A program made the translations under genes and the position numbers. This document shows, piece by piece, positions 55-16,355 of a stretch of DNA of 41,200 nucleotides. This DNA is from Methanomicrobiaceae archaeon. GTDB taxonomy: Archaea > Halobacteriota > Methanomicrobia > Methanomicrobiales > Methanoculleaceae. The stretch lies in the NCBI GenBank assembly GCA_020854755.1, contig JAHKLN010000022.1, positions 1-41,200 of the forward strand, given 5' to 3'. The first letter of the stretch is position 1, and each line of letters begins with the position of its first letter. The notes beneath the pieces are model-generated. The model ran no database searches, had not been told where the DNA came from, and saw nothing but the letters and a program-made list of their open reading frames with translations.

Positions 55-399
55 GAGAATTATAATTGACGCATTATAATATTAATATTGTTATAATAAT
101 AAGGGACAACGAGCACTAGCATCTGCAAATCCAACGTCGGCATATAGTAAACCCTAACATCCTCCGTTCAGGCAGCGGTGAATTGTCTGCTTATTTATGC
201 TATTCACCTAGCGCCACCCGTGCCGTAACCATCACCATTTGTTTGCTCTCCTGGATTAACTCTGATTGCCGCAAGACTCCTCATCGCCCTCCTGTTATTG
301 TGAAAAATGGCCATCATCAATGCAAAAGATTATTTAACGGTATAATACTACTAAATGTATTATCGTGCCGTTGCGACAATATGCAGAGGATATAGATCA
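55..399. promoter_or_regulatory. AT-rich intergenic region between transposase start and glycosyltransferase
   Basis: No convincing gene is present; a 70-codon open frame starting at 183 has no family-like sequence. Positions 60-100 are almost pure A/T and contain the perfect 12-base palindrome AATATTAATATT (78-89) flanked by ATTATAA (73-79) and TTATAAT (91-97). This could be an insertion-element end or a promoter for the minus-strand gene. TATA-like A/T stretches around 328-360 could serve the plus-strand gene starting at 400. Confidence 0.35.
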
Positions 400-3300
400 A
401 TGACAGTTCAGGCACTAGCGAGAAAGACTGCGGATTATGCGAAAAGAACGTTAAATTTTGACTCAAGGAGATGTCATGGGATAATAGTCCTTTTCTTGTT
501 TGCGGTTCTCATAATTGCATTTATTACACCTACATTCTCATATGGGAGACTCTTTGGCACTGACGAATACACACATCTCTTCCACAGCACCCAGATGCAC
601 TCTTCAGATTCGATTGCAGAATTCTATCAGAGAGTAGGCGGGATGGTGTCCAACCCAGACGACCATAATGCCCCGTTTAAATATCCGTTTGTCGCATGGC
701 TGTTTGGTGGAACGATTGCCAAGATTACAGGAACCGATCCTCACACCGCATCGTTCCTCTTTGCACTGATATTTGTCGGCATCCTGCTTGGTATTTTCTA
801 TTTATATGCGGGCATATTTTTGAAGATGAAAACCCAGAAATTGCTCGCGCTCTTCTTTCTCTTATCCATGCCGAATGTCGCCATGAGCATATCAGGTTTC
901 CGACCAAGTGTATTTGTCATGCCTTTTGTATTGCTATCGCTCTACAGCGTGATGAAAGAGAACTTCGACTGGAAGTCTGCTATTCTGATGGTTGTGAGCG
1001 TCTTTATGGTGGTCACCACGCATACGGGCACATTTCTCTTCTTGCTATCTTTTTCCATTGCTTTCCTTTTCCTGTACAGCCTGATCTGGGGGAAGTTTTC
1101 AAAACCGATGTACATTCTGTCAGCGAGCATGCTTTTTATTTATGTGATGGCTGTATCGGTCTTTCCGCACATACATCCACAATATATTGACAAAGCGACA
1201 ATGTTTCTCTCACCCGGCAGATTTCTCGCGTCAAATCTCTATATTATGTTCGCTGATGATCTTAGCCAAATATTATACACGAATTTGTTCGTTAATGCTG
1301 ACTTTGCATATGCTATTCTCTGGTCTGGCCTGATATATGCACTCTCCTTGCTTTTCCTCTTTATTCATGCAATAGTTGCCAAGCGTGCCCCGACCATCAG
1401 GGGGCACTTCCAGATTGCATTTCTACCCGCAGGCTTAGCCAAAGGCCTTACGTCCATCCCCATATGGTTAGGCCCCATCCATGTGCTACTTTCGTGCTTC
1501 GGATTTTTCCGGCTTGACAATAAGGCAAAGTGCTTAATGGTTGTCGCGCTGCTAGTTAGCGTCTTTCCTGAATTCCAGCGAAGTTTGGAAGATGTTTCAA
1601 TCGCCACCGGGGCAATGAGGAATATATACTATCTTGTAATTATCATCCCGATCACAGCGGTCCTTGGCTTTGAATATTTTGTATCATGGTTCAATAAATC
1701 TGGGTGGAATAAATTAAGAACCGGTGCCTGGATCCTTCCGATCACACTCGTCTTACTATTGTCGTCCTTCGTCGTCATTCCCGCCATAGGGAACTCCTAT
1801 TATCAGCCGCGAATATCAGGTGACGATTATGTAGTTGACGGCATGACATGGCTGAGTGATATCGGTAGTCCGCAGGAGGGTGTTGCCGGCTTTGGATTAC
1901 GAACGACTCCCATCTTTACCCAGAAAAAGACCGCATATGATTTGAGCTCCGGCTCTGATGTAAGAAATTATCGGACTTTGCTACGGAATATATTCTTCCA
2001 GGGCAGCCCACAGGCGGTTCAGGATTTTCACTCTGCCTATGGAATTAAATACATCCTCAATTCAGATAGAATCGCTGGAAACCTCGGTGGAAATCAGGCG
2101 CAGATGCGTGTTGATGTCAATACTGCAGTTGACAGGATATACTCGAGCAGGGATTTCGGGATCTACCGTAGCTTCACTTCTGACCAGCAGCGTTTTGACG
2201 ATGGATATCTTGACGATGATGTCAGAATTCAACACAGCGGATCCAACATTGAAATAGAATCAATCAGTTATAAGATGATTCTAGGAGATAACTCCCCGCA
2301 AATCAGATATATTGGCACGAGCAGCAGGAATTACCTCGGGGAAGGATTCATGAGAGAATTCGTGATTACGAGACTTGCTGGAGAGAGTAGAGCCCATAAC
2401 TTGGGCGACATGTGCTATGCAACTGAGTTGCTGGATAACCAAATCATTTACAAAGGTTTCCTCCAGGATGCAGGAGGTGAAGCTATTGGCACTATCACTG
2501 TAAAGTACACATTTTATCCCGATGCTGTTCAGCGAGAGTTTGTTATATCTAACGATCGATTGCAGAACACGACCAGTCTGATAGTGGAGCCAAGTACACG
2601 GTTCTTCAGTCCAATTGAGGGGTTTGTCCTCTTCAACAACGATCAACGGATTCCTAAACAGATTTACCCATCAGAAGACGGTTCATACCTTAGCGACAAG
2701 TTCAATGGTATATATCTGCAGAATAGGAATTCCGGCATTTATATTGAGTATAGTCCAACTAATCCCTACCCGATGAATATGTATTATGCGGGTTCAACGA
2801 GATATAGCTCTTACGCTTCCATCCAGATCAGGCAATCGAGAACTCTGAACCCGGGTTCATCCTACCAGAGTGTTCAGCACATCACAATTGGCGACGAGCC
2901 TACCGCAAGAATCAGAGTGGAGCGTCAAAAGAGCATTGAGCTCCACCAATATCCAGATGGCATCATTCCGATGGCAATTATCGAAGAGATTCCGGGTCCG
3001 TTTAGATATGATCTAGCGGCAATCAAAGCGCAGATTGACAGAAGGGCACCCTATATGATCACAGCCCCCATCAGGCCTCCGTTCCGCGGGATTCTCTATG
3101 AGGAAGGGCTCAGGCGGCCTCAGATCGCTGTGTATCAGGGCAGCGCAACGGAGCTTGTCCTGCTGCCCGCATCAGATCCGCCAAGCACAGCGCTGCAAAG
3201 GGAGGATCCCGATGGTATCGTTGCACAGTGGAGGATGGTGATCGACAGTGTTGCCAAGAACAACGACATGGCCCTCTTCGCCTTCAGGACTGCGGACATG

Positions 3301-3939
3301 CAAAATCCCGAATATTCCAGGAGATTTGACGACCTCTTCGATTATGCACGTCGCAGTGGACTGACGCCGACGACGCCAGAGGCCATAGCGGACCATTACC
3401 GTAAGCTGCAGATGGTCTCCTATACAGCATCCCGGGAGCTGGACACCGCCACAATCACTGTTGCGAGCAGCAACTCCGAACCAATCTCCGGTGTGACCTT
3501 CAGAGCCACTATGCCCCGACTTGATGAAGGGGAGTATCGGGTCACGGGAGGGACTGTTGCGAATATCAGGGATTCTGGTGATAACGTCGTCATCTACGCC
3601 TCTGTTAACCTCGCTCCGTATGAAACACGGACTTTAACAATCGAACCGGATATGCCGAGAAAGCAACTAGCAATCGTGGTACCGGAGTATCCGATCGAGA
3701 AGAGGGTGCAGATAATGGTCAAGGGAGAAGATAGCGAGCCGATAAGGAAGGCCTCAGTTACCATCGAAGGCTTCCCGATTCCCTTTGAAACCGACGCTAA
3801 GGGGATTGTGAAGGTGGAGCTTCCGCGTGGCACCTATCGGGTTACTGTGGAAAATCCCGGATATAAAAAAGAGACTTTCACGATGGATGTTGTGGGGAGG
3901 ATCTACGCCCTCCACCACCTTATCTACGATCGTCTCTGA
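400..3939 (+). CDS. GT-C-like polytopic membrane glycosyltransferase with large C-terminal extracellular domains
   Basis: A 1179-residue protein. Residues ~27 to ~480 hold many hydrophobic segments. The first loop carries an acidic motif (GTDEYTH, D55-E56) and a downstream KYPF, as in GT-C glycosyltransferases of the STT3/PMT kind that use lipid-linked sugar donors outside the membrane. A short globular stretch follows (YGIKYILNSDR). The rest looks extracellular: a beta-rich middle, a region at ~850-1020 that weakly resembles a degenerate NodB/polysaccharide-deacetylase fold, and a final ~75 residues resembling a carboxypeptidase-regulatory-like beta-sandwich (A-S-V-T-I-E-G, then T-D-A-K-G). 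The ATG at 400 is preferred over the in-frame ATG at 355 because AGAGGA lies 9 bases before it. Its last 20 bases overlap the convergent archaeosortase gene. Acceptor and donor are unknown, and the function is inferred from topology and motif only. Confidence 0.7.
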   Translation: MTVQALARKTADYAKRTLNFDSRRCHGIIVLFLFAVLIIAFITPTFSYGRLFGTDEYTHLFHSTQMHSSDSIAEFYQRVGGMVSNPDDHNAPFKYPFVAWLFGGTIAKITGTDPHTASFLFALIFVGILLGIFYLYAGIFLKMKTQKLLALFFLLSMPNVAMSISGFRPSVFVMPFVLLSLYSVMKENFDWKSAILMVVSVFMVVTTHTGTFLFLLSFSIAFLFLYSLIWGKFSKPMYILSASMLFIYVMAVSVFPHIHPQYIDKATMFLSPGRFLASNLYIMFADDLSQILYTNLFVNADFAYAILWSGLIYALSLLFLFIHAIVAKRAPTIRGHFQIAFLPAGLAKGLTSIPIWLGPIHVLLSCFGFFRLDNKAKCLMVVALLVSVFPEFQRSLEDVSIATGAMRNIYYLVIIIPITAVLGFEYFVSWFNKSGWNKLRTGAWILPITLVLLLSSFVVIPAIGNSYYQPRISGDDYVVDGMTWLSDIGSPQEGVAGFGLRTTPIFTQKKTAYDLSSGSDVRNYRTLLRNIFFQGSPQAVQDFHSAYGIKYILNSDRIAGNLGGNQAQMRVDVNTAVDRIYSSRDFGIYRSFTSDQQRFDDGYLDDDVRIQHSGSNIEIESISYKMILGDNSPQIRYIGTSSRNYLGEGFMREFVITRLAGESRAHNLGDMCYATELLDNQIIYKGFLQDAGGEAIGTITVKYTFYPDAVQREFVISNDRLQNTTSLIVEPSTRFFSPIEGFVLFNNDQRIPKQIYPSEDGSYLSDKFNGIYLQNRNSGIYIEYSPTNPYPMNMYYAGSTRYSSYASIQIRQSRTLNPGSSYQSVQHITIGDEPTARIRVERQKSIELHQYPDGIIPMAIIEEIPGPFRYDLAAIKAQIDRRAPYMITAPIRPPFRGILYEEGLRRPQIAVYQGSATELVLLPASDPPSTALQREDPDGIVAQWRMVIDSVAKNNDMALFAFRTADMQNPEYSRRFDDLFDYARRSGLTPTTPEAIADHYRKLQMVSYTASRELDTATITVASSNSEPISGVTFRATMPRLDEGEYRVTGGTVANIRDSGDNVVIYASVNLAPYETRTLTIEPDMPRKQLAIVVPEYPIEKRVQIMVKGEDSEPIRKASVTIEGFPIPFETDAKGIVKVELPRGTYRVTVENPGYKKETFTMDVVGRIYALHHLIYDRL

Positions 3940-4837
3940 TCAATGAGATGCCTCTTGTCGGTAGCAGCGAAAGCCCGAGCTGGCGCGTAAAGAAATAGTA
4001 CCAGAAGACGATCATCCAGGCGGAGAAGATGATCCAGCCGATGTGATCATGGGCGACCTTGATGATAATCTCAGAGCCGTAGAGATACCCGCTGATCGCA
4101 ATCAGAAATACTCTGCCGACGTTGACAGCATATGTCCCGATAAACCCAAGGGAGATGAGAATCAGCCCCCCGCGGGTTCTTCCTTCAGGAAAACTGAATA
4201 GGACGATGAGCGATGCCATTGCAAACGTCCCGAGCGACCAGATCCCCGAGCAGTCACCAACAACTGCAAGGCGTATGCTGTCTCCGGTCAGGGAAGTGAA
4301 TGAGATCACGTTTCCGGAGATAACCGCATCTATTCCGACAAGGTGCAGGAGAAGCATTGTGAAAAAGATCAGGGGAGGCAAAAGGGGCGCCACCACCCAG
4401 TCCTGGTGGCGTAAAAATATACTGTAGACCTGGTACCCAAAGACAGCGATCAGCGGAAACGACACCGGGACGAGAAAGGAGGCGTACCTGAGCAGGCCGA
4501 AGGCGATAATGGCGATGCCGGAGAGGAGGATTGAGAAGTCGCTGATCGAATAGGGCGGGTTGCCAAATCCCAGCGGGACATTGAGGAAACTATAGGCGCA
4601 GACGACGATTCCCACCGCAACCATGATTTGGCTGTCCCGTTCCGTAAGGTGGCTGATACTCCGTCGGGACTGGAAGAAGAGCGCAACGCACGCGAGCACC
4701 CAGATGCCGAGGGCATCGACCATCATGTAAGCCGGCCCGGTGAAAAAAAGAAAGAGTGTCACGGAGGCAAGGGCGATGCCAATCCATATCAGCGCAGCCT
4801 TCTGCGGATCAACGGATCTGAAGTCGGGAAATCTCAT
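3920..4837 (-). CDS. Archaeosortase/exosortase family transpeptidase
   Basis: A 305-residue polytopic protein with about eight hydrophobic segments. It has the hallmarks of the exosortase/archaeosortase family: a catalytic-type Cys in GDCSGIW (C196), an Arg in NVGR (R242) and His in AHDHIGW (H263/H265), each next to a membrane segment. The family cleaves C-terminal tripartite sorting signals (short motif, hydrophobic helix, basic tail) of secreted proteins, probably joining the new C-terminus to a lipid. A matching substrate, a PEF-CTERM protein, lies ~2.2 kb away (7001-8191), which suggests the ArtC-type subfamily; I could not confirm the subfamily. The start codon overlaps the stop of the upstream DUF1616 gene (4834-4837), so the two are translationally coupled. 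Confidence 0.88.
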   Translation of the reverse strand: MRFPDFRSVDPQKAALIWIGIALASVTLFLFFTGPAYMMVDALGIWVLACVALFFQSRRSISHLTERDSQIMVAVGIVVCAYSFLNVPLGFGNPPYSISDFSILLSGIAIIAFGLLRYASFLVPVSFPLIAVFGYQVYSIFLRHQDWVVAPLLPPLIFFTMLLLHLVGIDAVISGNVISFTSLTGDSIRLAVVGDCSGIWSLGTFAMASLIVLFSFPEGRTRGGLILISLGFIGTYAVNVGRVFLIAISGYLYGSEIIIKVAHDHIGWIIFSAWMIVFWYYFFTRQLGLSLLPTRGISLIRDDRR

Positions 4838-5256
4838 CCTGCCTGCTCCCGCACCCAGAAGTGTACACTCTCGGTGCTGCCGCTTTCGGCCTTCAGGTCC
4901 ACTCTGATCTTGAGCGGGTATGTGGCATTGGGAGGAAGTTGAACCCGCGCCTCGCTCTCGTAGGTCTCGCCCCGCCTTATCTCAAACGTTTCGCTGCCGT
5001 ATAGTGTGTCATCGGCATAGAACTCCAGCACATATGCCGTTTTCCCGCGTTCATTGCTGGTCACGCCATAGGTGAAGAGAACGTCATTGCCATCGAGCGC
5101 ATAAGGGGATGGATCGGGTACGAGGTATAGTGCAGAGTACGGCTCATCGGCGATAATTAGAAAGAAAGCAACCGTCAGCACACCGACTACCGTGGCAACA
5201 ATGGCAGCAGTCCGTATCATGGGGTACAGGTGTTCGTCCCACTCGTTCTCGTCCAT
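4834..5256 (-). CDS. DUF1616-like membrane-anchored protein, archaeosortase partner
   Basis: A 140-residue protein. A short cytoplasmic N-terminus is followed by one hydrophobic segment at ~14-36 (IRTAAIVATVVGVLTVAFF) and an extracellular beta-rich domain starting with YSALYLVPDPSPYALDG. The YSALYL start and the later L-E-F-Y and G-E-T-Y-x-x-E elements resemble DUF1616 proteins, which are often found next to exosortase-like enzymes and surface-glycan genes in archaea. It is first in a two-gene unit and overlaps the archaeosortase start by four bases. The role is not established; helping sorting or surface attachment is an inference from the neighbour. Confidence 0.65.
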   Translation of the reverse strand: MDENEWDEHLYPMIRTAAIVATVVGVLTVAFFLIIADEPYSALYLVPDPSPYALDGNDVLFTYGVTSNERGKTAYVLEFYADDTLYGSETFEIRRGETYESEARVQLPPNATYPLKIRVDLKAESGSTESVHFWVREQAG

Positions 5257-5526
5257 CTGGCTGATCAGCTACTATAGCCTCTGGAATTTAATAACTTCTC
5301 CGGTCGCGCAGATCGTCCGGAGGTATCGCTGATACCCTTGGACCGGAAAAGGCATGCCGGTGAACGCCCAGAACAGTGATCTGATCGCTGAAAGTGAATT
5401 GTAAGGAACAGAGGAGATGGCGAAGGAATACCGCTTTGCTGATACAAGCTCAAGCGAAATACCGCGCCATATGCAGTCATACAGGGAAAAGAGTATCAGT
5501 TCAAAACCTAAATGCTAACAGGAGCC

Positions 5527-6309
5527 ATGGACATCCTCACAGCCGTGATTCTGGGCATCATGCAGTGCATTACCGAGTGGCTGCCCATCAGCAGCGAAGG
5601 GCAGACAATGCTTTTTATGCTGAACCACCTGGGGATCGAACCGCATGCCGCCCTTTCATATGCCATCTTCCTCCATGTCGGCACAACCCTTGCGGTACTT
5701 GTACGGTTTCGTAGGGAATATCTGGGGATACTGCAGAATCTGCAGCCCGATTTCAGGCTAACAAGGATACTGATCGGGGCCACCCTCTGCACCGCGGTAA
5801 CAGCCGTCCCGCTGTACTTCTTGCTGAAGGGTGCGCTCCTCGGGGTTGATGTCGCGCCTGTCAACCTTCTGATCGGTATGATGCTCATTGCTACCGGTAT
5901 TCTTCTCAAGACCTCCGTCTGGTCGGGCACAAAGGAGATCGACCAGATCACCGACAGGGACATCGCAGTACTGGGTTTTGCGCAGGGTTTTGCCATAATC
6001 CCGGGGATCTCCCGGTCGGGCATCACCCTCGCAGCCCTTCTGGGGGGACGGGTGAAGCAGGAGGCAGCGCTCGCCGTCTCGTTTCTCATCAGTGTGCCTG
6101 CGGTCATCGGCGCGGTCGTCCTGGACTTTGAGGGGATCCAGCAGATTCAGGTGCAGAGCGCAGGTATCCTGATTGTATCGTCGTTTGCCGCTGGATACCT
6201 CACAATGGACCTACTGCTGAAATACTCGAGGCGTATCTCATTCTGGAGTTTCTGCGTAATTGTGGGTGTGGTTCTGATCGCAGCAGGGCTGATTTCCCTG
6301 TTGTGGTAA
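5527..6309 (+). CDS. uppP: UppP/BacA-like polyprenyl-diphosphatase
   Basis: A 260-residue protein with about eight membrane segments. It has both family motifs: Q13-x-x-x-E17 followed by WLPISSEGQ, and PGISRSGIT (159-167) with the phosphate-binding Arg163. The bacterial family removes a phosphate from undecaprenyl diphosphate to recycle the glycan carrier; in archaea the substrate is presumably a related polyprenyl/dolichyl diphosphate. Bacterial enzymes read SSSGH at motif 1; here it is SSEGQ, so the usual His is Gln. The ATG at 5527 is chosen because family members begin at this M-D-I-L. An in-frame ATG at 5512 would add five residues, and neither has an ideally spaced ribosome site. It is divergent from the DUF1616/archaeosortase pair. 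Confidence 0.85.
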   Translation: MDILTAVILGIMQCITEWLPISSEGQTMLFMLNHLGIEPHAALSYAIFLHVGTTLAVLVRFRREYLGILQNLQPDFRLTRILIGATLCTAVTAVPLYFLLKGALLGVDVAPVNLLIGMMLIATGILLKTSVWSGTKEIDQITDRDIAVLGFAQGFAIIPGISRSGITLAALLGGRVKQEAALAVSFLISVPAVIGAVVLDFEGIQQIQVQSAGILIVSSFAAGYLTMDLLLKYSRRISFWSFCVIVGVVLIAAGLISLLW

Positions 6310-6350
6310 GGAAGGGTAAAGGGCTCTTCCGCTCAAATCTATTGTTAAAA

Positions 6351-6367
6351 ATTGACCCTGGGTCAAT
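6351..6367. promoter_or_regulatory. Perfect 17-base palindrome
   Basis: ATTGACCCTGGGTCAAT reads as two perfect 8-base arms around a single T. It lies 42 bases after the uppP stop. It could be the binding site of a dimeric regulator or a small hairpin ending the uppP transcript. No T-run follows directly, which favours a protein site slightly. Confidence 0.4.
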
Positions 6368-6384
6368 CAAGGATAGAATGTAGG

Positions 6385-6525
6385 TTATAGGGCAGTCAGG
6401 TCGGATAATGCTTCCTGCATGGCATGAGTTAAACGATTCTGGGCGATTGGAGGATGGACAAAGTCTTCGATAGCCTCATTGGCAGTCATCTGAATAGGTA
6501 CTGCATTCTGAGAATAGATTGCCAT
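6385..6525 (-). CDS. Possible small ORF or gene remnant, 46 residues
   Basis: Open frame from an ATG at 6525 preceded by GGGAGG (spacing only about 2 bases). The peptide starts MAIYSQNAVPIQM and ends with an amphipathic stretch (Q-E-A-L-S-D-L-T-A-L). The frame stays open ~21 codons further upstream of this ATG, so it may be the 3' remnant of a longer gene. I do not recognise the family. Composition looks protein-like, but the size and poor start spacing make it uncertain. Confidence 0.25.
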   Translation of the reverse strand: MAIYSQNAVPIQMTANEAIEDFVHPPIAQNRLTHAMQEALSDLTAL

Positions 6526-7000
6526 TGCCTCCCAAATTATGAAGATATCATGAAATTGTAGAGTCTGACCATCAAAGTTTTAATATATCCCTTTAGCATT
6601 TTAATTTTACATGGAATATATTTAGAAAGATATATCAGTACATAAAAAAAAGTTTAGATTAATCATTCCGTTCGGGAATCGAGAGATCATCAGAAGCCCG
6701 CTGATTATAAAGAGCACTAAAATCTGCCCCTTACGCCAGAAACCGCTTGAATTAGCCGAAGCTGCACGACCCCCATCGCCTGCATTCCGCACTGCACCCT
6801 TCCCTCCCTGCACGAGCACCGTTCGGAATGGTAGGAGTCCGTATCTGGAGAGGCGAATAGCAGCAGGAGAGCAATCATATCGATGTTGGTGCTGATCGGC
6901 CGGCATCATATGGATTGCCACCATTCGCTTAGCTGGGGCTATCCATGCACCGAGCACACCTCGATGTGGGCTCCGTTCAAAAAGCAACGCGAGGTCGAAA

Positions 7001-8191
7001 ATGAACAGAAAGTATGGTATCCTTATTGGTATTGTCCTCCTGTCACTCGTTGCCTGCCAAGTAGCGGTTGCTGCGGATAAGTACGAATTTATTACAACCT
7101 GGGACTCGATTGCCCATAGCGACGAAGAGTTCAATTATCCCTATGGCATCGCGATTGATGCCGCTGGTAAGACTCTCTATTTAGTTGATAAAAACAATTG
7201 CGTCATCCATAAGTTTTCGCTTAGTGATGACATTTCTCGTATCCCTGAAATCCAATCTCGCAACCTGAACAATGAAATTCCTTCTTTGCCGACGAGAGAA
7301 TGGACGGTAGGACCGGACTATGATGACGAGTTTGGAAAAATTCAAGATGCAATCGATGCTGCAAATGATGGCGATACTATCATTGTAAAAAGTGGGAGAT
7401 ATCAAGAAAACGTTGTAGTTAATAAACAACTAATTCTACGCGGGAATTGGGCGGTTATTGTAGATTCAGTAACTCTGAGCGCAGACGGTATTGACCTTAG
7501 TGGTTTTACGGTGGTCCACGGAATATGGGTGTTATCTAACAACAATTACATTGAGAATGTTTATGCCGGGTGGGATGCTGAAGACACGGGTTGGGGCGTA
7601 GACGGTTTTTCCATCAGTGGCTCTAACAACGTCATCACCAATTGCCTGGTTTATGGATATTATTTAGGCGGCCGAGCCATAGGCTTAACCCTCGCCTCTT
7701 CCAACGGCAATACCATCAGCGAGATTTATATTATCGATGGTTTCATCGGCATAGACCTCAATGGCTCAAATAATATCTTCCAAGACAGCTCAATGTGGAC
7801 AAGAGGCTGTCCAATTATTCTCGATGGATCCAATTATAACACCTTTACCAACTGCTTCATTGAGTGCAATACGTATATTGATCATGGCATTTCCCTCTTC
7901 AATTCTAACGAAAATACGTTTATTAACTGCGATATTTTCGGCGGAGGTCACGGCGTATATATTTGTGGATCTAACGAGAATTCCTTCACCAATTGTCGCA
8001 TCGAGGGTTGTTTGTACGGAGTTTGCCAGGAAAGTAACAGCAAAAATAACATCTTTACATGTTGCACAGTTTACGGCGGCATTGCAGACTGGTATGGTTT
8101 TCCTGTCCCCGAATTCCCAACAGTTGCCATCCCGGCGGTCATGGTGATGGGGTTTGCCTCCATCATGATGGTTGCCCGCGGGCGGAGGTAG
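7001..8191 (+). CDS. Secreted PEF-CTERM surface protein with parallel beta-helix
   Basis: A 396-residue protein. Residues 1-24 form a signal peptide (MNRKYGILIGIVLLSLVACQ...). Residues ~30-68 resemble one NHL-type beta-propeller repeat (YPYGIAIDAAGKTLYLVD). From ~105 it has the IQDAIDAANDGDTIIVKSGRYQENVVV start of a NosD/PbH1-like right-handed beta-helix, followed to ~355 by repeating N-T-F/N-x-I/F-x-N-C coils. The tail from residue 369 is VPEFPT, then a hydrophobic helix, then RGRR: a PEF-CTERM sorting signal for an archaeosortase such as the one at 3920-4837. GAGGT lies a few bases before the ATG. A single NHL-like repeat joined to a beta-helix is odd and may be a remnant of a longer propeller. 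It is probably lipid-anchored at the surface; any sugar-binding role is speculative. Confidence 0.82.
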   Translation: MNRKYGILIGIVLLSLVACQVAVAADKYEFITTWDSIAHSDEEFNYPYGIAIDAAGKTLYLVDKNNCVIHKFSLSDDISRIPEIQSRNLNNEIPSLPTREWTVGPDYDDEFGKIQDAIDAANDGDTIIVKSGRYQENVVVNKQLILRGNWAVIVDSVTLSADGIDLSGFTVVHGIWVLSNNNYIENVYAGWDAEDTGWGVDGFSISGSNNVITNCLVYGYYLGGRAIGLTLASSNGNTISEIYIIDGFIGIDLNGSNNIFQDSSMWTRGCPIILDGSNYNTFTNCFIECNTYIDHGISLFNSNENTFINCDIFGGGHGVYICGSNENSFTNCRIEGCLYGVCQESNSKNNIFTCCTVYGGIADWYGFPVPEFPTVAIPAVMVMGFASIMMVARGRR

Positions 8192-8200
8192 AACGGTCAA

Positions 8201-8443
8201 CTACCCCTCAAACCCAATTCTTTTTAGAAAGAGCATATCCGCCTCATGGAGGAGCTTTGACGCCCAATGATCAGAACAATTGCTAATCTCGACGGTTCGA
8301 TACAGCTGTGATGCATTGAATGCAGCTTCCGTGCGGTTCAAAGGGTATATTGAATGTGCAAAAATTGAATGTGCAAAATCCTCAATCGATCTTTCGGTCA
8401 CCTTACATCGCTTTTCACAATCAGACGGATTAATTCTCTGCAT
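8201..8443 (-). CDS. Possible small protein of 80 residues, unknown family
   Basis: Open frame starting MQRINPSDCEKRCK and ending LKRIGFEG. It has charged helical stretches (V-T-E-R-S-I-E-D-F; A-S-K-L-L-H-E-A-D). A perfect 15-base tandem repeat at 8349-8378 duplicates the pentapeptide FAHSI without breaking the frame, which is mild support for coding. I do not recognise a family and see no clear ribosome-binding site. It converges with the PEF-CTERM gene. It may be a decayed gene. Confidence 0.3.
   Translation of the reverse strand: MQRINPSDCEKRCKVTERSIEDFAHSIFAHSIYPLNRTEAAFNASQLYRTVEISNCSDHWASKLLHEADMLFLKRIGFEG
8349..8378. repeat. Perfect 15-base tandem duplication
   Basis: ATTGAATGTGCAAAA occurs twice in direct succession. 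Being five codons long, it keeps the minus-strand frame open. Confidence 0.8.
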
Positions 8444-8918
8444 CCATCAGGGGTACAGATAATCCATAAAAGGAAGCAGAGTAGCGAAGCAGAGCAATAT
8501 ATTTTATGAGCAGGGCACAGATAGCGTCGGATAAGTATGCGCGCTATCATTTTGTCGCAGGATAGAAAAGCGGTATTTGCTCATTCGTCAGGGGAGTTTG
8601 CGATAGAAAATCTCTCAACCTCTGCGATACTGACCGACGCGCGTTTATTAGAAATTATGCATTTGATTAGACGCTCCGGCAAATACCCCTCGAAAACAGA
8701 TTGTAGCGAATATCATAAAGAATTACATTGATATTGCTTTATAGAGCATCATTTGGCCAACAAGGGGTCGGAGATTCAAATAATTAATTATATAAAATTG
8801 TCTGACTTATACCTATTGATATAACTCACCAGCAATGAAGAGGCAATATTTTACTGTCAATAAAAAATATTCGATTAAAATATAAAATATTTCCTTTATT
8901 AGGCATAAAAAAAAACAA

Positions 8919-8932
8919 AGAATATAAATATA
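8919..8932 (+). promoter_or_regulatory. TATA-like promoter element of the heparinase-like gene
   Basis: The sequence AATATAAATATAAG lies about 50-60 bases before the ATG at 8981, placing a start site ~25 bases downstream and leaving a short leader that carries the GGAGA ribosome site. Assigned by sequence and spacing only; the surroundings are A/T-rich, so other positions are possible. Confidence 0.4.
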
Positions 8933-8980
8933 AGAACATGTAATTATTCGCTTACCCTTTGAAGTATGTGGAGAATTGTC

Positions 8981-11900
8981 ATGGAGATGAGACTAAAAAC
9001 AATGGTAATTTTCTCCTGCCTACTGCTTGCGATAAGCATGATTCCGGTATCGGTTTCGGCTGACACCCAGGAGCACCCGGGTCTTCTGTTCAATGATATC
9101 AGGGATACGCCGGGGTATCAGAATCGAGATAGTGAACCGTGGAAAAGCTGGGAGAATAGCATAATCCGAAGCGCAAATCGTGCGTTGACACGGGATTTTT
9201 CGGATCCTGATTGGTCTCGAGACAATCGAATATCACACAGAGGTGAATTCGCCCTAGAACTAGCACTTTCATATCTAATTTCAGAAAATGAGGACTATGC
9301 AGATAAAGCAACCGAGGCACTGCTTAACATCGGTGTTGGAGATACATCAGGAAAGGTATTTCGTGCTAGAGGGTTAGGCAGTTATTCTCTTGCCTATGAC
9401 TTGATGCAACCCCATCTCTCATCACACGAGGATATAATTATTCGAGATAAATTAGCCGAACTCGCTGACTGGGTATATTATGATCTTAATGATGGTGGAA
9501 CGAACCTAGATTATGTTACTTTTGCAGATTATCACGGCCAGGCATACCCGCGCGTTGGGGTTGCCGCCTGCGCTCTTGCCGACTACACCAACCCCAACAA
9601 CCTGCCGCTCACTTCAACGCCAGCTGACTGGCTGAAGGTGGGGACTGATTATCTCTTTGTCAACGACAAGCTACACTCGCACGGGAGATCGCTTCATAGT
9701 TTCGGATTTGACGAAGCATCGGGAAAACATCTAAACGGTGCATATAAAAATTACGTTATAAGCGATTATCTTCTGTGGTTCCAGGTCTACAGCCATTTTT
9801 TCGGAGAAAATATATTCGACCGTTATCCTACTGCAAAAACGGCATTCACATCTGAACTCTGGGAGAATATGCCGAATTGTTACGGTCCGAATTATGTCAC
9901 ATCAGGAAACGTCAAGTGGACCTACCTTCCTGGAATCGTCAATTTGCTCGAAGGTGACGAGCAAGCCTATATACTGAACCACATTGACCAGGTTTCGGAG
10001 ACACAAGTATTGCCCCATTCAAGGAGTTTCGGAAGCCCCAGTGATTATCTTCTCTATTGCGCATATGAAGATTATTCCAATGTCCAGCGTAAGTTCCCCG
10101 CTTGGACAAGTCGTCTGGACGAGAATACCATCTATCAGGTATTTCGAGGAGGCTGGGACAGAGATGCCGACTGGCTGTCGCTCATCACTTTCAATGTAAT
10201 CACAGGTAGCAATCGCGATGCCTCTCACCACGACCAGATGAGCTTTGAATACTATAGCAAGGGCGATCTTTTACTTGCTGATGCCGGCGAGGATAAGAAA
10301 ACAGGAAAGTCAGAAAATTGGGTTACACTTCCGGCATATTACGGCAAGTATGACATCCACCACAATACTATCGCAATAGAAAATCCCCGCATACCGTTTA
10401 ACGTAGCTCCATGGTCAGACAGCAGTGCAAGGGGCATCTGGAAAGGCGGATCGCTCAATATTGTATCACCGGTAAAGATTTCAACAATTATAAACTCTAA
10501 TATTATCGAAGCACTGGTTACGGAATGTACGTTCAATCGAGTACTTGGAGATGGTAATTGGGCGTCAAGTCAAACAATTTCATCCCCCATTACCTACGGT
10601 CGAACCGTCCTCTACCCAGAGAAAGATTACTTCATCGTCATTGACCGGACTGAGGGCAGCGAGTCATGGGTATACCGGAATGTCTTCCGGCCGACAAGCC
10701 TGACCATCAACCCGACGACCTCAACGAGCAGCGTGGGCAACACGAAGGTTGATCTCTCCATCGACGGCACGCCGTACAACTGGCTTGCTCTGTCGTACAA
10801 GAAAGAGACGGCAACAGGCAAGCACACAAACTCCATCGAATGGAATACCGTTAACCCGTATGGCGATAAGGTCGCGATGCAGCTCTTCTCCGCGCCTGCA
10901 TCAGAGGTGCTGGTGACAAAGCACGTCGGCAGGGTTGCCGGATATGATATGGCATCGGAAGTCTTCGTCCCGATCGTGCAGCTTATAACTGATGCCACCC
11001 AGAACCAGTACCGCATCACCACCCTCCTCTCCCGCTACGCCCACGAAGAGGCACGGGTGCCGGTCGAGCTCCCGGTGACCGGGACGGGGAGTGCGATTCG
11101 CGTACGTTCGTCCGCCTATGAAGATTATATCTATTCGGGCAGTGGGGAGTCGTCGTTTGCGACGTTTGCGACCGATGCCGATACGGTCTTCCTGAGGACA
11201 GCGGCGGCAGGCGATTCGCGGGAGTACACGATCCTGTCCGGGTCGTACCTGACGGACGGGGGAAAGCCCGTGATCAGCATCTCACAGCCCGTGGACTACA
11301 TTACCCTGAAAGAAGATTCAGACTGCATGCAGTTCAAGGTGGGCGGTTCGGGCACGGTCGATATCACCATCCACCAGATGCCGTATTCGGTCCAGAAGAT
11401 CACCAAGAACGGAGCAACGTATACGAACTGGGAGGCGGGAGACGACTACTCGGTGACGATCACGACGGACTTGAGCGAGCACGAGTTCAAGATCTATGCG
11501 GGATCTCCCCTCGAGCTGCCGCCAGTGGCAAACCTCACGGCGAACGTGACCGCAGGCGAGGCGCCCCTCGTGGTTGCGTTTACGGACCTCTCGACCGGGG
11601 ATCCAGCGGAGTGGGCCTGGGACTTCGGGGACGGTGTGGTGTCTGACGGGCAGCATCCCGAGCACATCTACACCGAGGCGGGCAACTACACCGTGAACCT
11701 GACGGTGACGAACGCCTACGGTGCGGACAGTCTGGAGATTGCGGACTATATCATCGTCACGGAAGCATGTGAGCCGCCTGAATCGCCGGTGGCGGACTTT
11801 TCAGCGAACGTGACGGCAGGCGAGGCGCCGCTTGCGGTTGCGTTTGCGGACGAGTCCACCGGCGAGCCTGACGAATGGCTCTGGGAGTTCGGCGACGGGA

Positions 11901-13702
11901 GCACGTCAGCGGACCAGCACCCGGAGCATATCTATGAGGCCGCAGGGAACTATACCGTCAGCCTGACGGTCACAAACGATGCCGGCAGCGACACCGCCAC
12001 CGCGACGGACTGTATCACGGTGACCGCCGCCGCCGCGCCGGCGCCCTCTCCGACGCCCACGCCTGAACCAACACCGGATCCCGGCAGGCCGGATCTCGTG
12101 GTGACCGGGATCGCCTGGCTGCCGGCAGAACCGGTTGAGGGCGACGAGATCGTCATGCAGGCGGCGATCAAAAACCAGGGCGACGCCCCGACGCCCGAGG
12201 GCGTGATCCACGGCGTGCTGTTTGCGACGGACAGCGACCGGATGAGCCCGGGCGTCTGGTCCGACAACCACACGGCCTCGATTGCGCCTGGCGAGTCGGT
12301 CATGGTGACGGCAAACGGCGGTTCTGCCGGCGCGGCCTGGACGGCGGTGGAGGGGGCGCACACCATCACGGCGCATGTCGACGACGTGAACCGGATCGAA
12401 GAGAGCGACGAAGAGAATAACCTGCTGACGGCCACGATGACGGTCGCGGCTGCGCCGGCAGCGCCGACGCCGGTGCCGCCTCCCGAAGCAGCCTTCTCCG
12501 CGAATGTGACCGCAGGGGAGGCGCCGCTTGCGGTCGCGTTTGCGGACGAGTCCACCGGCGAGCCTGACGAATGGCTCTGGGAGTTTGGCGACGGTACCAA
12601 CGCCACCGTGCAGCGCCCGGAGCATATCTATGAGGCGGCGGGCAACTACACCGTCAGCCTGACCGTGACGAACGAGGGCGGCAGCGACACCGCAACAGAG
12701 GAGGGATACATCACGGTTGCCGAGCCCCTGGCCGCAAACTTCACCGCGAACGTGACGGCAGGCGAGGCGCCGCTCGCAGTCGAGTTCTCCGATCTCTCGA
12801 CCGGAGGGCCGACACGCTGGGCCTGGGACTTCGGGGACGGCGCGACGTCTGATGAGCAGCACCCGGTCCACACCTATGAGTCCGCTGGAAACTACACCGT
12901 CAGCCTGACGGTCACAAAGATCCGCTCCTATGCCCCTGACGGCGGCCTGCCGCTCCTCTCGGTAGTCCTCCCGGTGACCGACGGGGAGGAGAGCGACACG
13001 ATGACAAAGGAGCACTACATCACGGTCACCGAGCCTCCGATCGCACCGCCGGTGGCAGAGTTTGCGGCGGACGTGACCGCAGGGGAGGCGCCGCTCGCGG
13101 TTGAGTTTTCGGATCTCTCGACCGGCGAGCCTGACGAATGGCTCTGGGAGTTCGGCGATGGAGCGACATCGACCGTGCAGCACCCAACCCACACCTATAC
13201 AACGGCAGGCACCTACACCGTCTCCCTGACGGTCACAAACAGGGGCGGCAGCGATACCGCGGTGCAGGCGGCGTGCATCACCGTGCGGCCACCGCCGACG
13301 CCCACGCCGACGCCCACGCCGACACCGAGCCCGACGCCGACACCCGAGCCGACCAAATCCCCGGGATCTTCTCCGCCGCCTCATGCAAATGTGCCGTCCC
13401 ATGCAAAGGCGTACATAAAGATCGGCGGCGTAGAACTGCTGGATCAGGCCGTACCTACGCCCACGCCCACGGCGACCGTGACACCGACGCCCACGCCGAC
13501 GCCCACGCCGACACCGTCCGGATCCGATGATGAGACGGTCGGAAATGGTGGCGGCCAGAACCAGCTGCCGGATGATCCCGATGATCCCGATGATCCCGAT
13601 GATGGCGGTGACGGGGAGAAGAGCAACTCCGGCCTCGGGAAGGCGCTCGGCCTGATTAAGAAACTGCTCAACGGTCTGATTTCCTTAACCGGGCAGGCAT
13701 AA
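8981..13702 (+). CDS. Secreted heparinase II/III-like polysaccharide lyase with five PKD domains and one CARDB domain
   Basis: A 1573-residue protein. A signal peptide (LKTMVIFSCLLLAISMIPVSVSA) precedes a catalytic-type region of ~780 residues: an alpha-helical part (with ADYHGQAYPRVG), then a beta part with HHDQMSFEYY near 416 and YDIHHN, the pattern of heparinase II/III and alginate lyases. Two PKD domains (~846-1015), one CARDB (~1036-1159) and three more PKDs (~1167-1437) follow, each PKD with a WxWxFGDG core. Thr-Pro-rich linkers, an Asp-Pro-Asp run and a final amphipathic helix close it. No PEF/PGF-CTERM tail is present, so attachment is unclear. The ATG at 8981 is preferred over 8966 because GGAGA sits 6 bases before it. 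Base composition switches between A/T-rich and G/C-rich blocks inside the lyase part, suggesting mosaic origin. The substrate is unknown. Confidence 0.8.
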   Translation: MEMRLKTMVIFSCLLLAISMIPVSVSADTQEHPGLLFNDIRDTPGYQNRDSEPWKSWENSIIRSANRALTRDFSDPDWSRDNRISHRGEFALELALSYLISENEDYADKATEALLNIGVGDTSGKVFRARGLGSYSLAYDLMQPHLSSHEDIIIRDKLAELADWVYYDLNDGGTNLDYVTFADYHGQAYPRVGVAACALADYTNPNNLPLTSTPADWLKVGTDYLFVNDKLHSHGRSLHSFGFDEASGKHLNGAYKNYVISDYLLWFQVYSHFFGENIFDRYPTAKTAFTSELWENMPNCYGPNYVTSGNVKWTYLPGIVNLLEGDEQAYILNHIDQVSETQVLPHSRSFGSPSDYLLYCAYEDYSNVQRKFPAWTSRLDENTIYQVFRGGWDRDADWLSLITFNVITGSNRDASHHDQMSFEYYSKGDLLLADAGEDKKTGKSENWVTLPAYYGKYDIHHNTIAIENPRIPFNVAPWSDSSARGIWKGGSLNIVSPVKISTIINSNIIEALVTECTFNRVLGDGNWASSQTISSPITYGRTVLYPEKDYFIVIDRTEGSESWVYRNVFRPTSLTINPTTSTSSVGNTKVDLSIDGTPYNWLALSYKKETATGKHTNSIEWNTVNPYGDKVAMQLFSAPASEVLVTKHVGRVAGYDMASEVFVPIVQLITDATQNQYRITTLLSRYAHEEARVPVELPVTGTGSAIRVRSSAYEDYIYSGSGESSFATFATDADTVFLRTAAAGDSREYTILSGSYLTDGGKPVISISQPVDYITLKEDSDCMQFKVGGSGTVDITIHQMPYSVQKITKNGATYTNWEAGDDYSVTITTDLSEHEFKIYAGSPLELPPVANLTANVTAGEAPLVVAFTDLSTGDPAEWAWDFGDGVVSDGQHPEHIYTEAGNYTVNLTVTNAYGADSLEIADYIIVTEACEPPESPVADFSANVTAGEAPLAVAFADESTGEPDEWLWEFGDGSTSADQHPEHIYEAAGNYTVSLTVTNDAGSDTATATDCITVTAAAAPAPSPTPTPEPTPDPGRPDLVVTGIAWLPAEPVEGDEIVMQAAIKNQGDAPTPEGVIHGVLFATDSDRMSPGVWSDNHTASIAPGESVMVTANGGSAGAAWTAVEGAHTITAHVDDVNRIEESDEENNLLTATMTVAAAPAAPTPVPPPEAAFSANVTAGEAPLAVAFADESTGEPDEWLWEFGDGTNATVQRPEHIYEAAGNYTVSLTVTNEGGSDTATEEGYITVAEPLAANFTANVTAGEAPLAVEFSDLSTGGPTRWAWDFGDGATSDEQHPVHTYESAGNYTVSLTVTKIRSYAPDGGLPLLSVVLPVTDGEESDTMTKEHYITVTEPPIAPPVAEFAADVTAGEAPLAVEFSDLSTGEPDEWLWEFGDGATSTVQHPTHTYTTAGTYTVSLTVTNRGGSDTAVQAACITVRPPPTPTPTPTPTPSPTPTPEPTKSPGSSPPPHANVPSHAKAYIKIGGVELLDQAVPTPTPTATVTPTPTPTPTPTPSGSDDETVGNGGGQNQLPDDPDDPDDPDDGGDGEKSNSGLGKALGLIKKLLNGLISLTGQA
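11515..13290 (+). repeat. Five PKD-domain repeats in the surface protein
   Basis: Repeats at about 11515-11765, 11773-12025, 12479-12715, 12722-13035 and 13038-13290; a CARDB domain separates the second and third. They share near-identical DNA for A-N-V-T-A-G-E-A-P-L and G-N-Y-T-V-S-L-T-V-T, so recent duplication or gene conversion is likely. The fourth copy has a ~20-residue insert before its last strands. Confidence 0.85.
13294..13353 (+). repeat. Pro-Thr linker-coding microsatellite
   Basis: Repeated CCGACGCCCACG-like hexamers encode alternating Pro-Thr with later Ser and Glu. A similar array lies at 13455-13516. They form extended linkers between the last PKD and the C-terminal region. 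Confidence 0.8.
13571..13603 (+). repeat. 9-base tandem repeat coding Asp-Asp-Pro
   Basis: GATGATCCC occurs three times plus a partial fourth, encoding a D-D-P run near the C-terminus of the heparinase-like protein. The acidic run could bind calcium or act as a spacer; this is inference. Confidence 0.8.
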
Positions 13703-15371: not shown

Positions 15372-16355
15372 TCACCCCGGCACGAAGAACCCGATCGCGC
15401 AGAAGATCGCCGTGAGGGCAAACATCGCGTGGGTGGCCTGCCGCTCGGTCATGCGGAAGTAGTAGGGGAGCACCCACTTCAGGGTGAGGGGGTTTGGGAC
15501 CTCGACGGTGCCGTCGTCGCGGATCCTGCCGAACTTCGCCTCCGGGTACTTCTTGGTCGCCCGCCAGTAGACGTAGAGGAGGAAGTTTGCCGTGTGGGGG
15601 ATCAGCATGATGAAGCCGCTGACGATGAAGCCCTGCACGACGATCGTCGCCCCGATCGCGGCGCCGACGGCGAGCGCCCCGATGTTGCCCCAGAAGATGC
15701 GGGCCGGGTAGTTCTCGAAGAAGAAGTAGGCGGCAAGGGCTCCGGTGAGGCTGACGGTGAAGAGGATGGTGAAGACGTCCCCGTAGGCGATCGTCTTTAG
15801 GATGAGGGTTGCGAGCACGATCAGCGAGAGCCCGGGCGCCAGGCCGTTGAAGCCGGAGTGCATGTTCACGAGGTTTGCAACCACCGGCACGTAGGTCGGT
15901 ATGATCAGCTGCAGGTAGACGATCCCGAGATCGACGGGGCCGATGAAGGGGAGGTAGAGGAGCGTCGTCATCGCATACGGGATCAGGGCGTAGGAGCAGT
16001 AGTAGAGCATCACGAGCTTTGCCGGCCGGCCGATATTGACGATGTCGTCGAGCAGCCCGAAGAAGGCGAAGAGGGCGACGACGATCATGATCGTGTAGTT
16101 CACCGGCTCGATGTACTTTGCATAGAAGAGGGAGGTGAGCGAGATCGAGAAGAAGGCGATGAGCACGATGACCAGCCCGCCGTTTGACGGGACTTCGGGG
16201 AAGCCGTGCTTGTACATGTCCTTCACGATGAAGCGCCGGTCCCGGATCTTTTTGATCACCGCAGGCAGCGTGAAGAGTATGAGCGCAAACGGAATGGCGA
16301 AGTAGACAAGAAGCATGAAGTTCAGCGAGGAGACGAAGGGCTCTAACCGGAACAC
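15372..16355 (-). CDS. GlcNAc-1-phosphate transferase family (MraY/WecA/Alg7-like, glycosyltransferase family 4)
   Basis: A 327-residue polytopic protein with about ten membrane segments. It has family motifs: the Asp pair in FGLLDDI (D103-D104), NLVNMHSGFNGLAPG (~161-175) and HTANFLLYV. The family moves a sugar-1-phosphate from a UDP-sugar to a polyprenyl phosphate on the inner membrane face. In archaea, related proteins (AglH-like) start N-glycan or other surface-glycan assembly. The start is GTG at 16355. A TATA-like TATAATAAATC on the minus strand (~16377-16387) is ~25-30 bases before it, so the message may have almost no leader. It is last in the minus-strand run but separated from the HemK-like gene by 144 bases and so probably transcribed on its own. 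Confidence 0.85.
   Translation of the reverse strand: MFRLEPFVSSLNFMLLVYFAIPFALILFTLPAVIKKIRDRRFIVKDMYKHGFPEVPSNGGLVIVLIAFFSISLTSLFYAKYIEPVNYTIMIVVALFAFFGLLDDIVNIGRPAKLVMLYYCSYALIPYAMTTLLYLPFIGPVDLGIVYLQLIIPTYVPVVANLVNMHSGFNGLAPGLSLIVLATLILKTIAYGDVFTILFTVSLTGALAAYFFFENYPARIFWGNIGALAVGAAIGATIVVQGFIVSGFIMLIPHTANFLLYVYWRATKKYPEAKFGRIRDDGTVEVPNPLTLKWVLPYYFRMTERQATHAMFALTAIFCAIGFFVPG

What the first reader, a model, noticed from the sequence alone, without database searches (positions are those of the whole stretch)
400..8191. Surface locus: GT-C glycosyltransferase fusion, archaeosortase, DUF1616 protein, UppP-like enzyme and PEF-CTERM substrate
A sorting enzyme, its probable accessory, a lipid-carrier pyrophosphatase, a large extracellular-domain glycosyltransferase and a substrate with a PEF-CTERM tail lie together. 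The glycosyltransferase and archaeosortase genes even overlap tail to tail by 20 bases. This suggests that C-terminal sorting and sugar attachment work on the same surface proteins. The glycosyltransferase's C-terminal NodB-like and carboxypeptidase-regulatory-like parts are unusual for a GT-C enzyme.
Basis: partly seen in the sequence, partly recalled or inferred. Interest (0 to 1): 0.58.

Follow-up and report, generated by a model that had tools for sequence, protein, structure and literature searches.

The report
Archaeal protein-sorting and surface-sugar locus
A methanogen-type archaeon carries a membrane sortase, a likely tagged substrate and a large sugar-handling membrane protein side by side, and relatives keep them inside a surface-polysaccharide gene cluster, which suggests that some archaea glue sorted surface proteins to a sugar coat.

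Summary
The 1179-residue protein and this type of archaeosortase track each other: 11 of 13 genomes with the protein also have the enzyme, against 1 of 219 without it (232 order genomes). In relatives the pair brackets a ~20 kb polysaccharide cluster: UppP-like enzyme, polyprenyl-sugar transferase, FemAB-like transferases, deacetylases, flippase, PEFP-tailed secreted protein, uronate lyase-like proteins. The big protein has a membrane part (GT-C plausible, not shown), a mutarotase-like beta-supersandwich and a carboxypeptidase-regulatory domain; between them relatives have a NodB-fold domain without catalytic motifs, truncated in the window copy. The sortase keeps Cys/Arg/His but falls below the archaeosortase C cut-off; the tail falls below the PEF-CTERM cut-off. 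Best reading: a divergent archaeosortase C/PEF-CTERM system built into a surface-polysaccharide pathway, like bacterial exosortase loci. That the sortase joins proteins to a glycan amine (Wbp/Vim-like) is inferred. Against it: PEFP tails also occur in 9 of 220 genomes without a detected sortase, and the window's genome lacks the cluster deacetylase.

The parts
355..3939 (+). Large membrane protein ('gene1'; ATG at 355 or 400, 1194/1179 aa): multi-TM N-terminal half with invariant G53-x-D55-x3-H59, extracellular C-terminal half
   Evidence: ORF; 8 hydrophobic segments; invariant columns
2209..2946 (+). Galactose-mutarotase-like beta-supersandwich (residues ~604-849 of the 1179-aa form)
   Evidence: model; VIA Z 17.1, rmsd 3.0, 217 aligned to 3mwx_A
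2947..3414 (+). Remnant of a NodB-fold domain, shortened in this copy
   Evidence: L097 homologue Z 15.7 to 3rxz_A over 198 residues; gap; no catalytic motif
3706..3885 (+). Carboxypeptidase-regulatory-like domain (residues 1103-1162)
   Evidence: PF13620 34.9 bits
3920..4837 (-). Archaeosortase (divergent ArtC-like); C196, R242, H263/H265 invariant across the 8 aligned sequences
   Evidence: PF09721 75.4 bits; TIGR04178 49.4 bits, TIGR03762 53 bits (cut-off 100); alignment, invariants
3920..3939 (.). 20-base overlap of the two convergent gene ends
4834..5256 (-). 140-aa protein, one TM plus extracellular domain; an orthologue weakly matches the C-terminal half of DUF1616
5512..6309 (+). BacA/UppP-family lipid-carrier pyrophosphatase, bacterial SSTGH loop read as SSEGQ
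   Evidence: PF02673 159.4 bits; 5oon_A E 1.9e-18; alignment
7001..8191 (+). Candidate sorted substrate: signal segment, weak NHL match, right-handed beta-helix, PEFP tail
8105..8188 (+). VPEFP-CTERM-like sorting tail
8966..13702 (+). Secreted protein: alginate-lyase/chondroitinase-like N-terminal region, then PKD and CARDB domains
   Evidence: PKD/CARDB; profile A10 to 6jph_A E 3.1e-13 and PL35 chondroitinase 9o3q_A E 2.6e-4
15372..16355 (-). Glycos_transf_4 (WecA/MraY-type) polyprenyl-phosphate sugar-phosphate transferase, same family as the gene that heads the cluster in relatives
   Evidence: PF00953 81.2 bits; cluster c6

Best explanation
The locus is part of a protein-sorting system built into a surface-polysaccharide pathway. 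A WecA-like enzyme starts a lipid-linked glycan. In relatives, cluster enzymes deacetylate it, add amino acids or acyl groups (FemAB, ATP-grasp, hexapeptide) and flip it. The large membrane protein handles the glycan outside the membrane (probably a GT-C-type transferase or polymerase, with its mutarotase-like and catalytically dead NodB domains gripping the sugar chain). The UppP-like enzyme recycles the lipid and the lyase trims a uronic-acid polymer. The archaeosortase cuts VPEFP-tailed secreted proteins such as the beta-helix protein and hands the new C-terminus to an acceptor made by the same pathway. Shown: the genes, their folds or families, co-occurrence and synteny. Inferred: the reaction order, that the tail is cut, that the big protein is a glycosyltransferase, and that the acceptor is the glycan.
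For: Co-occurrence of gene1 and this sortase: 11 genomes both, 2 gene1 only, 1 sortase only, 218 neither (Fisher p 4e-16 uncorrected for kinship; by genus 8/2/1/29, p 5e-6). Cluster between the two in G102, G103, G108, G120, G122, G123. Convergent gene1/sortase pair in the window, G101 and Methanoperedens MnB_21, where the sortase is a true ArtC and a PEFA-tailed protein is next; pair with one gene between in Methanoperedens BE2012. PEFP-tailed secreted protein next to the sortase in G108, G120, G122, a PEFA-tailed one in MnB_21, and another PEFP-tailed protein near it in G010. Three PEFP-tailed proteins in the window's genome. Polysaccharide-lyase similarity and mutarotase and NodB folds. FemAB-like and deacetylase families related to those of bacterial exosortase loci.
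Against: No biochemical data. PEFP tails at E<=1e-5 occur in 9 of 220 genomes without a detected sortase of this type, three of them at least 96% complete. The tail profile was built mostly from tails of sortase-bearing genomes, which inflates its association. Gene1 is found without the sortase in G004 and G161 (62% and 87% complete). The long-form deacetylase and the WbqC-like protein were not found in the window's 81%-complete genome; FemAB and flippase relatives are there but on other contigs. The GT-C fold is not confirmed.
Confidence: 0.5

Rival explanations
1. Two separate surface functions share one island: the polysaccharide genes make a capsule, while the archaeosortase anchors PEF-tailed proteins to a membrane lipid, as ArtA is thought to do. 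They travel together through transfer or co-regulation and do not act on one another.
For: For ArtA in Haloferax, PssA/PssD are needed and archaetidylethanolamine is the proposed amine acceptor (passages of PMC7157517). The block differs in third-position GC from the rest of the window, and no same-family genome matched either protein, so it may be acquired as a unit. EpsH disruption did not affect EPS production in Methylobacillus (passage of PMC1569441).
Against: The pair stays together across two orders and with two diverged sortase classes. No lipid-amine gene was recognised among the cluster proteins of G108 that were scanned.
Confidence: 0.3
2. Gene1 is a protein glycosyltransferase (PMT- or oligosaccharyltransferase-like) that puts sugar on side chains of the sorted proteins; the sortase step is separate.
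For: Multi-TM N-terminal half with an invariant Gly-x-Asp-x3-His motif and a PMT_2 match just over the cut-off in one relative (26.5 vs 26.1 bits).
Against: PMT_2 matched 2 of 12 members at E<=0.1. The extracellular domains resemble polysaccharide-binding or modifying proteins, and the cluster looks like a polymer pathway.
Confidence: 0.15
3. The neighbourhood in the window is a chance arrangement of unrelated membrane and surface genes.
For: The 20-base overlap is not conserved, and UppP and the tailed protein lie in other places in relatives.
Against: 11 of 13 versus 1 of 219 co-occurrence and recurring convergent order.
Confidence: 0.03

Closest known systems
Archaeosortase C / PEF-CTERM (TIGR03762 / TIGR03024)
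   Same: Exosortase superfamily, Cys/Arg/His residues, PEF-type tripartite tails; the four Methanoperedens genomes with gene1 that were searched have ArtC above the cut-off
   Different: Window enzyme 53 bits against a cut-off of 100, tail 12.7-15.2 against 23; 23-36% identity over 77-88 residues to the four ArtC rows compared, against 47-52% within its own group
Bacterial exosortase A / PEP-CTERM exopolysaccharide loci
   Same: Sorting enzyme inside a polysaccharide cluster with FemAB-like protein, polysaccharide deacetylase and (in Methanocalculus) an asparagine-synthase-like protein related to TIGR03108
   Different: All these matches are far below the equivalog cut-offs; archaeal envelope without outer membrane; gene1 and the DUF1616 halves have no counterpart that I found
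Type IX secretion Wbp/Vim linking-sugar pathway (PorU sortase)
   Same: VimE-like deacetylase (NF053580 87.3 bits), FemAB proteins related to TIGR03019 as VimA is reported to be, UDP-GlcNAc 3-dehydrogenase-like gene near the cluster (NF040723 152.3 bits)
   Different: Sortase of another family; no linking sugar demonstrated; the deacetylase profile also matches shorter proteins widely in the order (73 of 232 genomes in all)
ArtA / PGF-CTERM
   Same: Same superfamily; the window's genome also has ArtA (TIGR04125 286.5 bits)
   Different: Separate contig; a different tail class (recalled)

Membership tests
Exosortase/archaeosortase superfamily | PF09721 and TIGR04178 above curated cut-offs | tested here: met
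   75.4 vs 25.7 bits; 49.4 vs 23 bits
Exosortase/archaeosortase superfamily | Conserved Cys, Arg and His; about 8 TM segments | tested here: met
   C196, R242, H263/H265 invariant across 8 aligned sequences; 8 hydrophobic segments
Archaeosortase C (TIGR03762) | score above 100 bits | tested here: not met
   53.0 bits
PEF-CTERM (TIGR03024) | score above 23 bits | tested here: not met
   12.7 bits, 15.2 bits
PEF-CTERM (TIGR03024) | motif, hydrophobic stretch, basic end at the C-terminus of a secreted protein | tested here: met
PEF-CTERM (TIGR03024) | tail removed in the mature protein | not testable with these tools
   needs proteomics
GT-C glycosyltransferase | GT-C transmembrane fold | tested here: inconclusive
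   membrane part low pLDDT; PMT_2 just over cut-off in one relative
NodB / CE4 polysaccharide deacetylase | NodB fold | tested here: met
   in the Methanoperedens homologue L097, Z 15.7; the window copy is shortened and was not folded alone
NodB / CE4 polysaccharide deacetylase | metal-binding Asp and His-x3-His motifs (recalled) | tested here: not met
   no conserved DD or HxxxH in A9
Carboxypeptidase-regulatory-like (PF13620) | score above gathering cut-off | tested here: met
   34.9 vs 32.3 bits
DUF1616 (PF07760) | score above gathering cut-off | tested here: not met
   no match for the window protein; orthologue 17.5 vs 31.6 bits over profile 150-306
UppP/BacA | PF02673 above cut-off | tested here: met
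   159.4 vs 33.4 bits
UppP/BacA | bacterial-type active-site loop SSTGH | tested here: not met
   SSEGQ/SSEAQ in 7 of 7 cluster copies; SSTGH in the 5oon sequence
Wbp/Vim linking-sugar pathway | VimE model and VimA-related FemAB model (TIGR03019) above cut-off | tested here: not met
   VimE model 87.3 of 440 bits; FemAB model at most 84.8 of 260.35 bits in 5 genomes

The most novel reading that the evidence does not exclude
An archaeal counterpart of C-terminal glycan conjugation: the archaeosortase joins VPEFP-tailed proteins to an amine exposed on an amino-acid-modified amino-uronate of the cluster's lipid-linked polysaccharide, prepared by the VimE-like deacetylase and FemAB-like transferases. 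Exosortase and PorU systems would then have converged on the same kind of acceptor, and gene1 would be the outer-face enzyme that presents or extends that glycan.
Probability: 0.25. Interest if true: 0.85.

Novelty: new variant of a known kind. Interest (0 to 1): 0.6.

Why it matters
The acceptor to which exosortases and archaeosortase C attach their substrates is, as far as I found, unknown; Haft 2006 leaves it as 'an unknown periplasmic nucleophile' and Veith 2020 speculates about an amino-acid-modified sugar for bacteria (passages). A compact archaeal cluster shared by Methanogenium-like methanogens and Methanoperedens names a small gene set and specific PEF-tailed proteins in which the question can be tested by mass spectrometry. 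It also gives a candidate pathway for uronate-containing archaeal matrix polymers; for one of these, methanochondroitin, the biosynthesis genes are reported as unidentified (PMC12369344, passages). I did not test whether the cluster makes methanochondroitin.

Tried and rejected
Chance neighbourhood: rejected by the counts. 'The window holds the whole system': rejected; the cluster genes between the transferase and the sortase in relatives are not in the window. The WbqC-like profile found nothing in the window's genome (no positive control) and the long-form deacetylase was not there either. Completeness is 81%, so absence is not proven.

VimE as a specific marker: weakened, because the deacetylase profile matches 73 of 232 genomes at E<=1e-10. 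The long form scoring over 500 bits is in 10 of 232, all with gene1.

A tree of sortases was mostly unresolved. My script assumed all loci were on the + strand, so only 4 of 10 Methanoperedens ArtC rows entered it, and ArtA sat on a very long branch; I draw only the pairwise identities from it. One search covered 17 genomes for ArtC and found it over the cut-off in 4. It missed G096, which is known to hold a partial sortase of the window's class, so its blanks for the nine tail-bearing genomes prove little. Sequence search of gene1 against solved structures gave only chance-level hits. WbqC-like and flippase profiles found no solved relative. 'Wzx-like' for c8 and 'WbqC-like' for c10 are recalled from topology or motif; the c125 flippase is by Pfam. 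Rows dropped before counts: the short C-terminal matches G096 and G155, and G000:C80, G141 (57 residues, E 9e-4). In G103 many cluster genes are frame-broken and it was counted as present from its pieces; in G101 gene1 is a 596-aa piece at a contig edge.
Full report
WHAT IS THERE. The window is a whole 41,200-base contig of a 2.01 Mb, 81%-complete genome. All the genes described exist at the stated places. The first gene starts at 355 or 400 and ends at 3939; the sortase gene runs from 4837 down to 3920, so their ends overlap by 20 bases. The sortase gene overlaps the 140-aa gene by 4 bases. The UppP-like gene and the beta-helix gene follow on the plus strand. Two more genes belong to the same system by their relatives: a 1578-aa secreted protein (8966-13702) and a Glycos_transf_4 gene (15372-16355). 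The listed genes between 355 and 13702 have third-position GC of 0.48-0.69; the transferase has 0.92 and the remaining likely genes 0.75-0.92.

CO-OCCURRENCE. A search of 232 genomes of the order found the first protein, beyond short C-terminal matches, in 13 and the window-type archaeosortase in 12. Eleven have both, two the protein only (G004 62% and G161 87% complete), one the sortase only (G096, 76%), 218 neither. By genus the numbers are 8, 2, 1 and 29. Fisher p values (4e-16 and 5e-6) ignore kinship. None of the same-family genomes matched either protein, and the nearest relative of the big protein is in a Methanocalculus genome (61-62% identity).

CLUSTER IN RELATIVES. In G102, G103, G108, G120, G122 and G123 the two genes lie about 20 kb apart on one contig. 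In G108 the order is: UDP-GlcNAc 3-dehydrogenase-like gene, UppP, lyase-like gene, gene1, 140-aa gene, PKD lyase-like gene, Glycos_transf_4 family gene, DUF1616 N-terminal half, a 511-aa protein, PIG-L deacetylase, DUF354, a 542-aa deacetylase, FemAB, ATP-grasp, FemAB, hexapeptide transferase, a 477-aa membrane protein, a secreted PEFP-tailed protein and the archaeosortase. The DUF1616 family appears split: one cluster protein matches profile positions 20-114 and the 140-aa orthologue weakly matches 150-306.

THE CONVERGENT PAIR RECURS. In G101 gene1 and the sortase face each other tail to tail, as in the window, followed by the 140-aa gene. In Methanoperedens MnB_21 (another order) gene1 is followed, tail to tail with a 39-base gap, by a true archaeosortase C, then a PEFA-tailed secreted protein, DUF1616 and the 511-aa family. 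In Methanoperedens BE2012 one small gene lies between.

THE BIG PROTEIN. It has about eight hydrophobic segments in its first 463 residues and an invariant G-x-D-x3-H motif after the first. One relative scores just over the PMT_2 cut-off (26.5 vs 26.1 bits); two of 12 match at E<=0.1. The predicted membrane part is low-confidence, so GT-C stays plausible and unproven. Residues ~604-849 have a galactose-mutarotase-like supersandwich (Z 17.1, rmsd 3.0, 217 residues to 3mwx_A; similar Z to several glycosidases, a PL26 lyase and the YidC periplasmic domain). The C-terminal region of the Methanoperedens homologue (pLDDT 83) has a NodB fold (Z 15.7, rmsd 3.1, 198 residues to 3rxz_A; PelA at 12.0, Agd3 at 8.4), then beta domains including a carboxypeptidase-D-like one (Z 8.4, 69 residues). 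No DD or HxxxH motif is conserved, and the window and Methanocalculus copies lack a long stretch of that domain. I read it as a dead, probably sugar-binding, deacetylase remnant; binding is inference.

THE SORTASE AND ITS SUBSTRATES. The window enzyme is in the exosortase/archaeosortase superfamily but below the archaeosortase C cut-off (53 of 100 bits), with Cys196, Arg242 and His263/265 invariant across eight aligned sequences. The beta-helix protein's tail scores 12.7-15.2 of the 23 bits needed for PEF-CTERM. A DNA pattern for PEFP gave 28 places in the genome against 14 for the reversed control; three of the 28 look like true C-terminal tails: the window protein, an NHL-like repeat protein on C34 (repeat type judged by eye) and a small protein on C13. 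A profile of nine such tails matched 25 of 232 genomes at E<=0.01 and 19 at E<=1e-5. Of the 19, 10 are among the 12 sortase-bearing genomes and 9 among the other 220. The profile was trained mostly on tails from sortase-bearing genomes, so the association is somewhat circular. The nine exceptions count against a strict enzyme-tail pairing. The window's genome also has ArtA on another contig.

CHEMISTRY OF THE CLUSTER. The 542-aa deacetylase matches the VimE model (E 8e-25, 87.3 of 440 bits), with the XrtA deacetylase TIGR03006 next. FemAB proteins match TIGR03019, the XrtA-associated family, to which VimA is reported to be related (PMC7468200, passages). In Methanocalculus an asparagine-synthase-like protein related to TIGR03108 lies near gene1 and another asparagine synthase lies by the sortase. 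In Porphyromonas, VimE and VimA are proposed to complete the amino-acid-modified sugar to which cargo C-termini are joined, and the authors speculate that exosortase bacteria do likewise (same passages). All our matches are family-level. The lyase-like protein is related to an alginate lyase (E 3.1e-13) and a PL35 chondroitinase (E 2.6e-4), which suggests a uronic-acid polymer. The window's own genome holds nine FemAB matches on three other contigs, one of these contigs with a relative of the G101 flippase and one with a relative of the acyl-CoA-ligase-like gene of G010.

LITERATURE. Paper searches seen as listings: archaeosortase, PEF-CTERM, methanochondroitin with biosynthesis, DUF1616 (37), VimE/linking sugar, archaeosortase with exopolysaccharide or FemAB, with Methanoperedens or polysaccharide, exosortase/FemAB/deacetylase/archaea, archaeosortase with Methanomicrobiales. 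None of the listed titles or abstract openings describes this cluster or an archaeosortase-glycan conjugate; the paper that I recall as defining ArtC was not held. Passages were read in PMC5244752, PMC9723798, PMC12369344, PMC7468200, PMC7157517, PMC9012536, PMC8241124 and PMC1569441.

VERDICT. I file it as a new variant of the archaeosortase C / PEF-CTERM and exosortase-exopolysaccharide kind.

Noticed in passing
window 5512-6309; L041, L042, L043, L044, L046, L050 orthologues: The UppP/BacA loop that reads SSTGH in the solved bacterial enzyme reads SSEGQ or SSEAQ in all 7 cluster copies, so loop positions differ consistently; whether this is general in archaea was not checked.
   Followed up: partly
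L105 / G103:C11 1-32000: In the Methanogenium cariaci draft, gene1, the lyase-like proteins, the 511-aa protein, the deacetylase and the sortase are all broken by frame changes or stops, which looks like draft quality rather than separate decay.
   Followed up: no
L049 end of 3497-5308 and L039 3-1181: The lyase-like proteins of G101 and the Methanocalculus genome end in what looks like a dockerin repeat (DFNGNGxVDxxD), recalled motif, seen; no family search was run on it.
   Followed up: no
L094: A contig labelled Deltaproteobacteria (SpSt-1226) carries gene1 (73% identical to one of the clustered archaeal copies), the 140-aa gene and the lyase-like protein; either misbinned archaeal DNA or a transfer.
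   Followed up: no
L099 8839-9729; L098, L101, L097: In Methanoperedens the 140-aa orthologue carries an extra C-terminal stretch; in L099 it matches cupredoxin models (amicyanin/plastocyanin; alignment).
   Followed up: no
G097, G099, G159 and six others: Genomes with PEFP-type tails but no detected sortase of this type or ArtC; G099 (99% complete) has five such tails. What processes them is unknown.
   Followed up: partly
G000:C103 about 2100-14000: Four FemAB-like matches and a flippase relative on one contig of the window's genome, all FemAB on the minus strand.
   Followed up: partly
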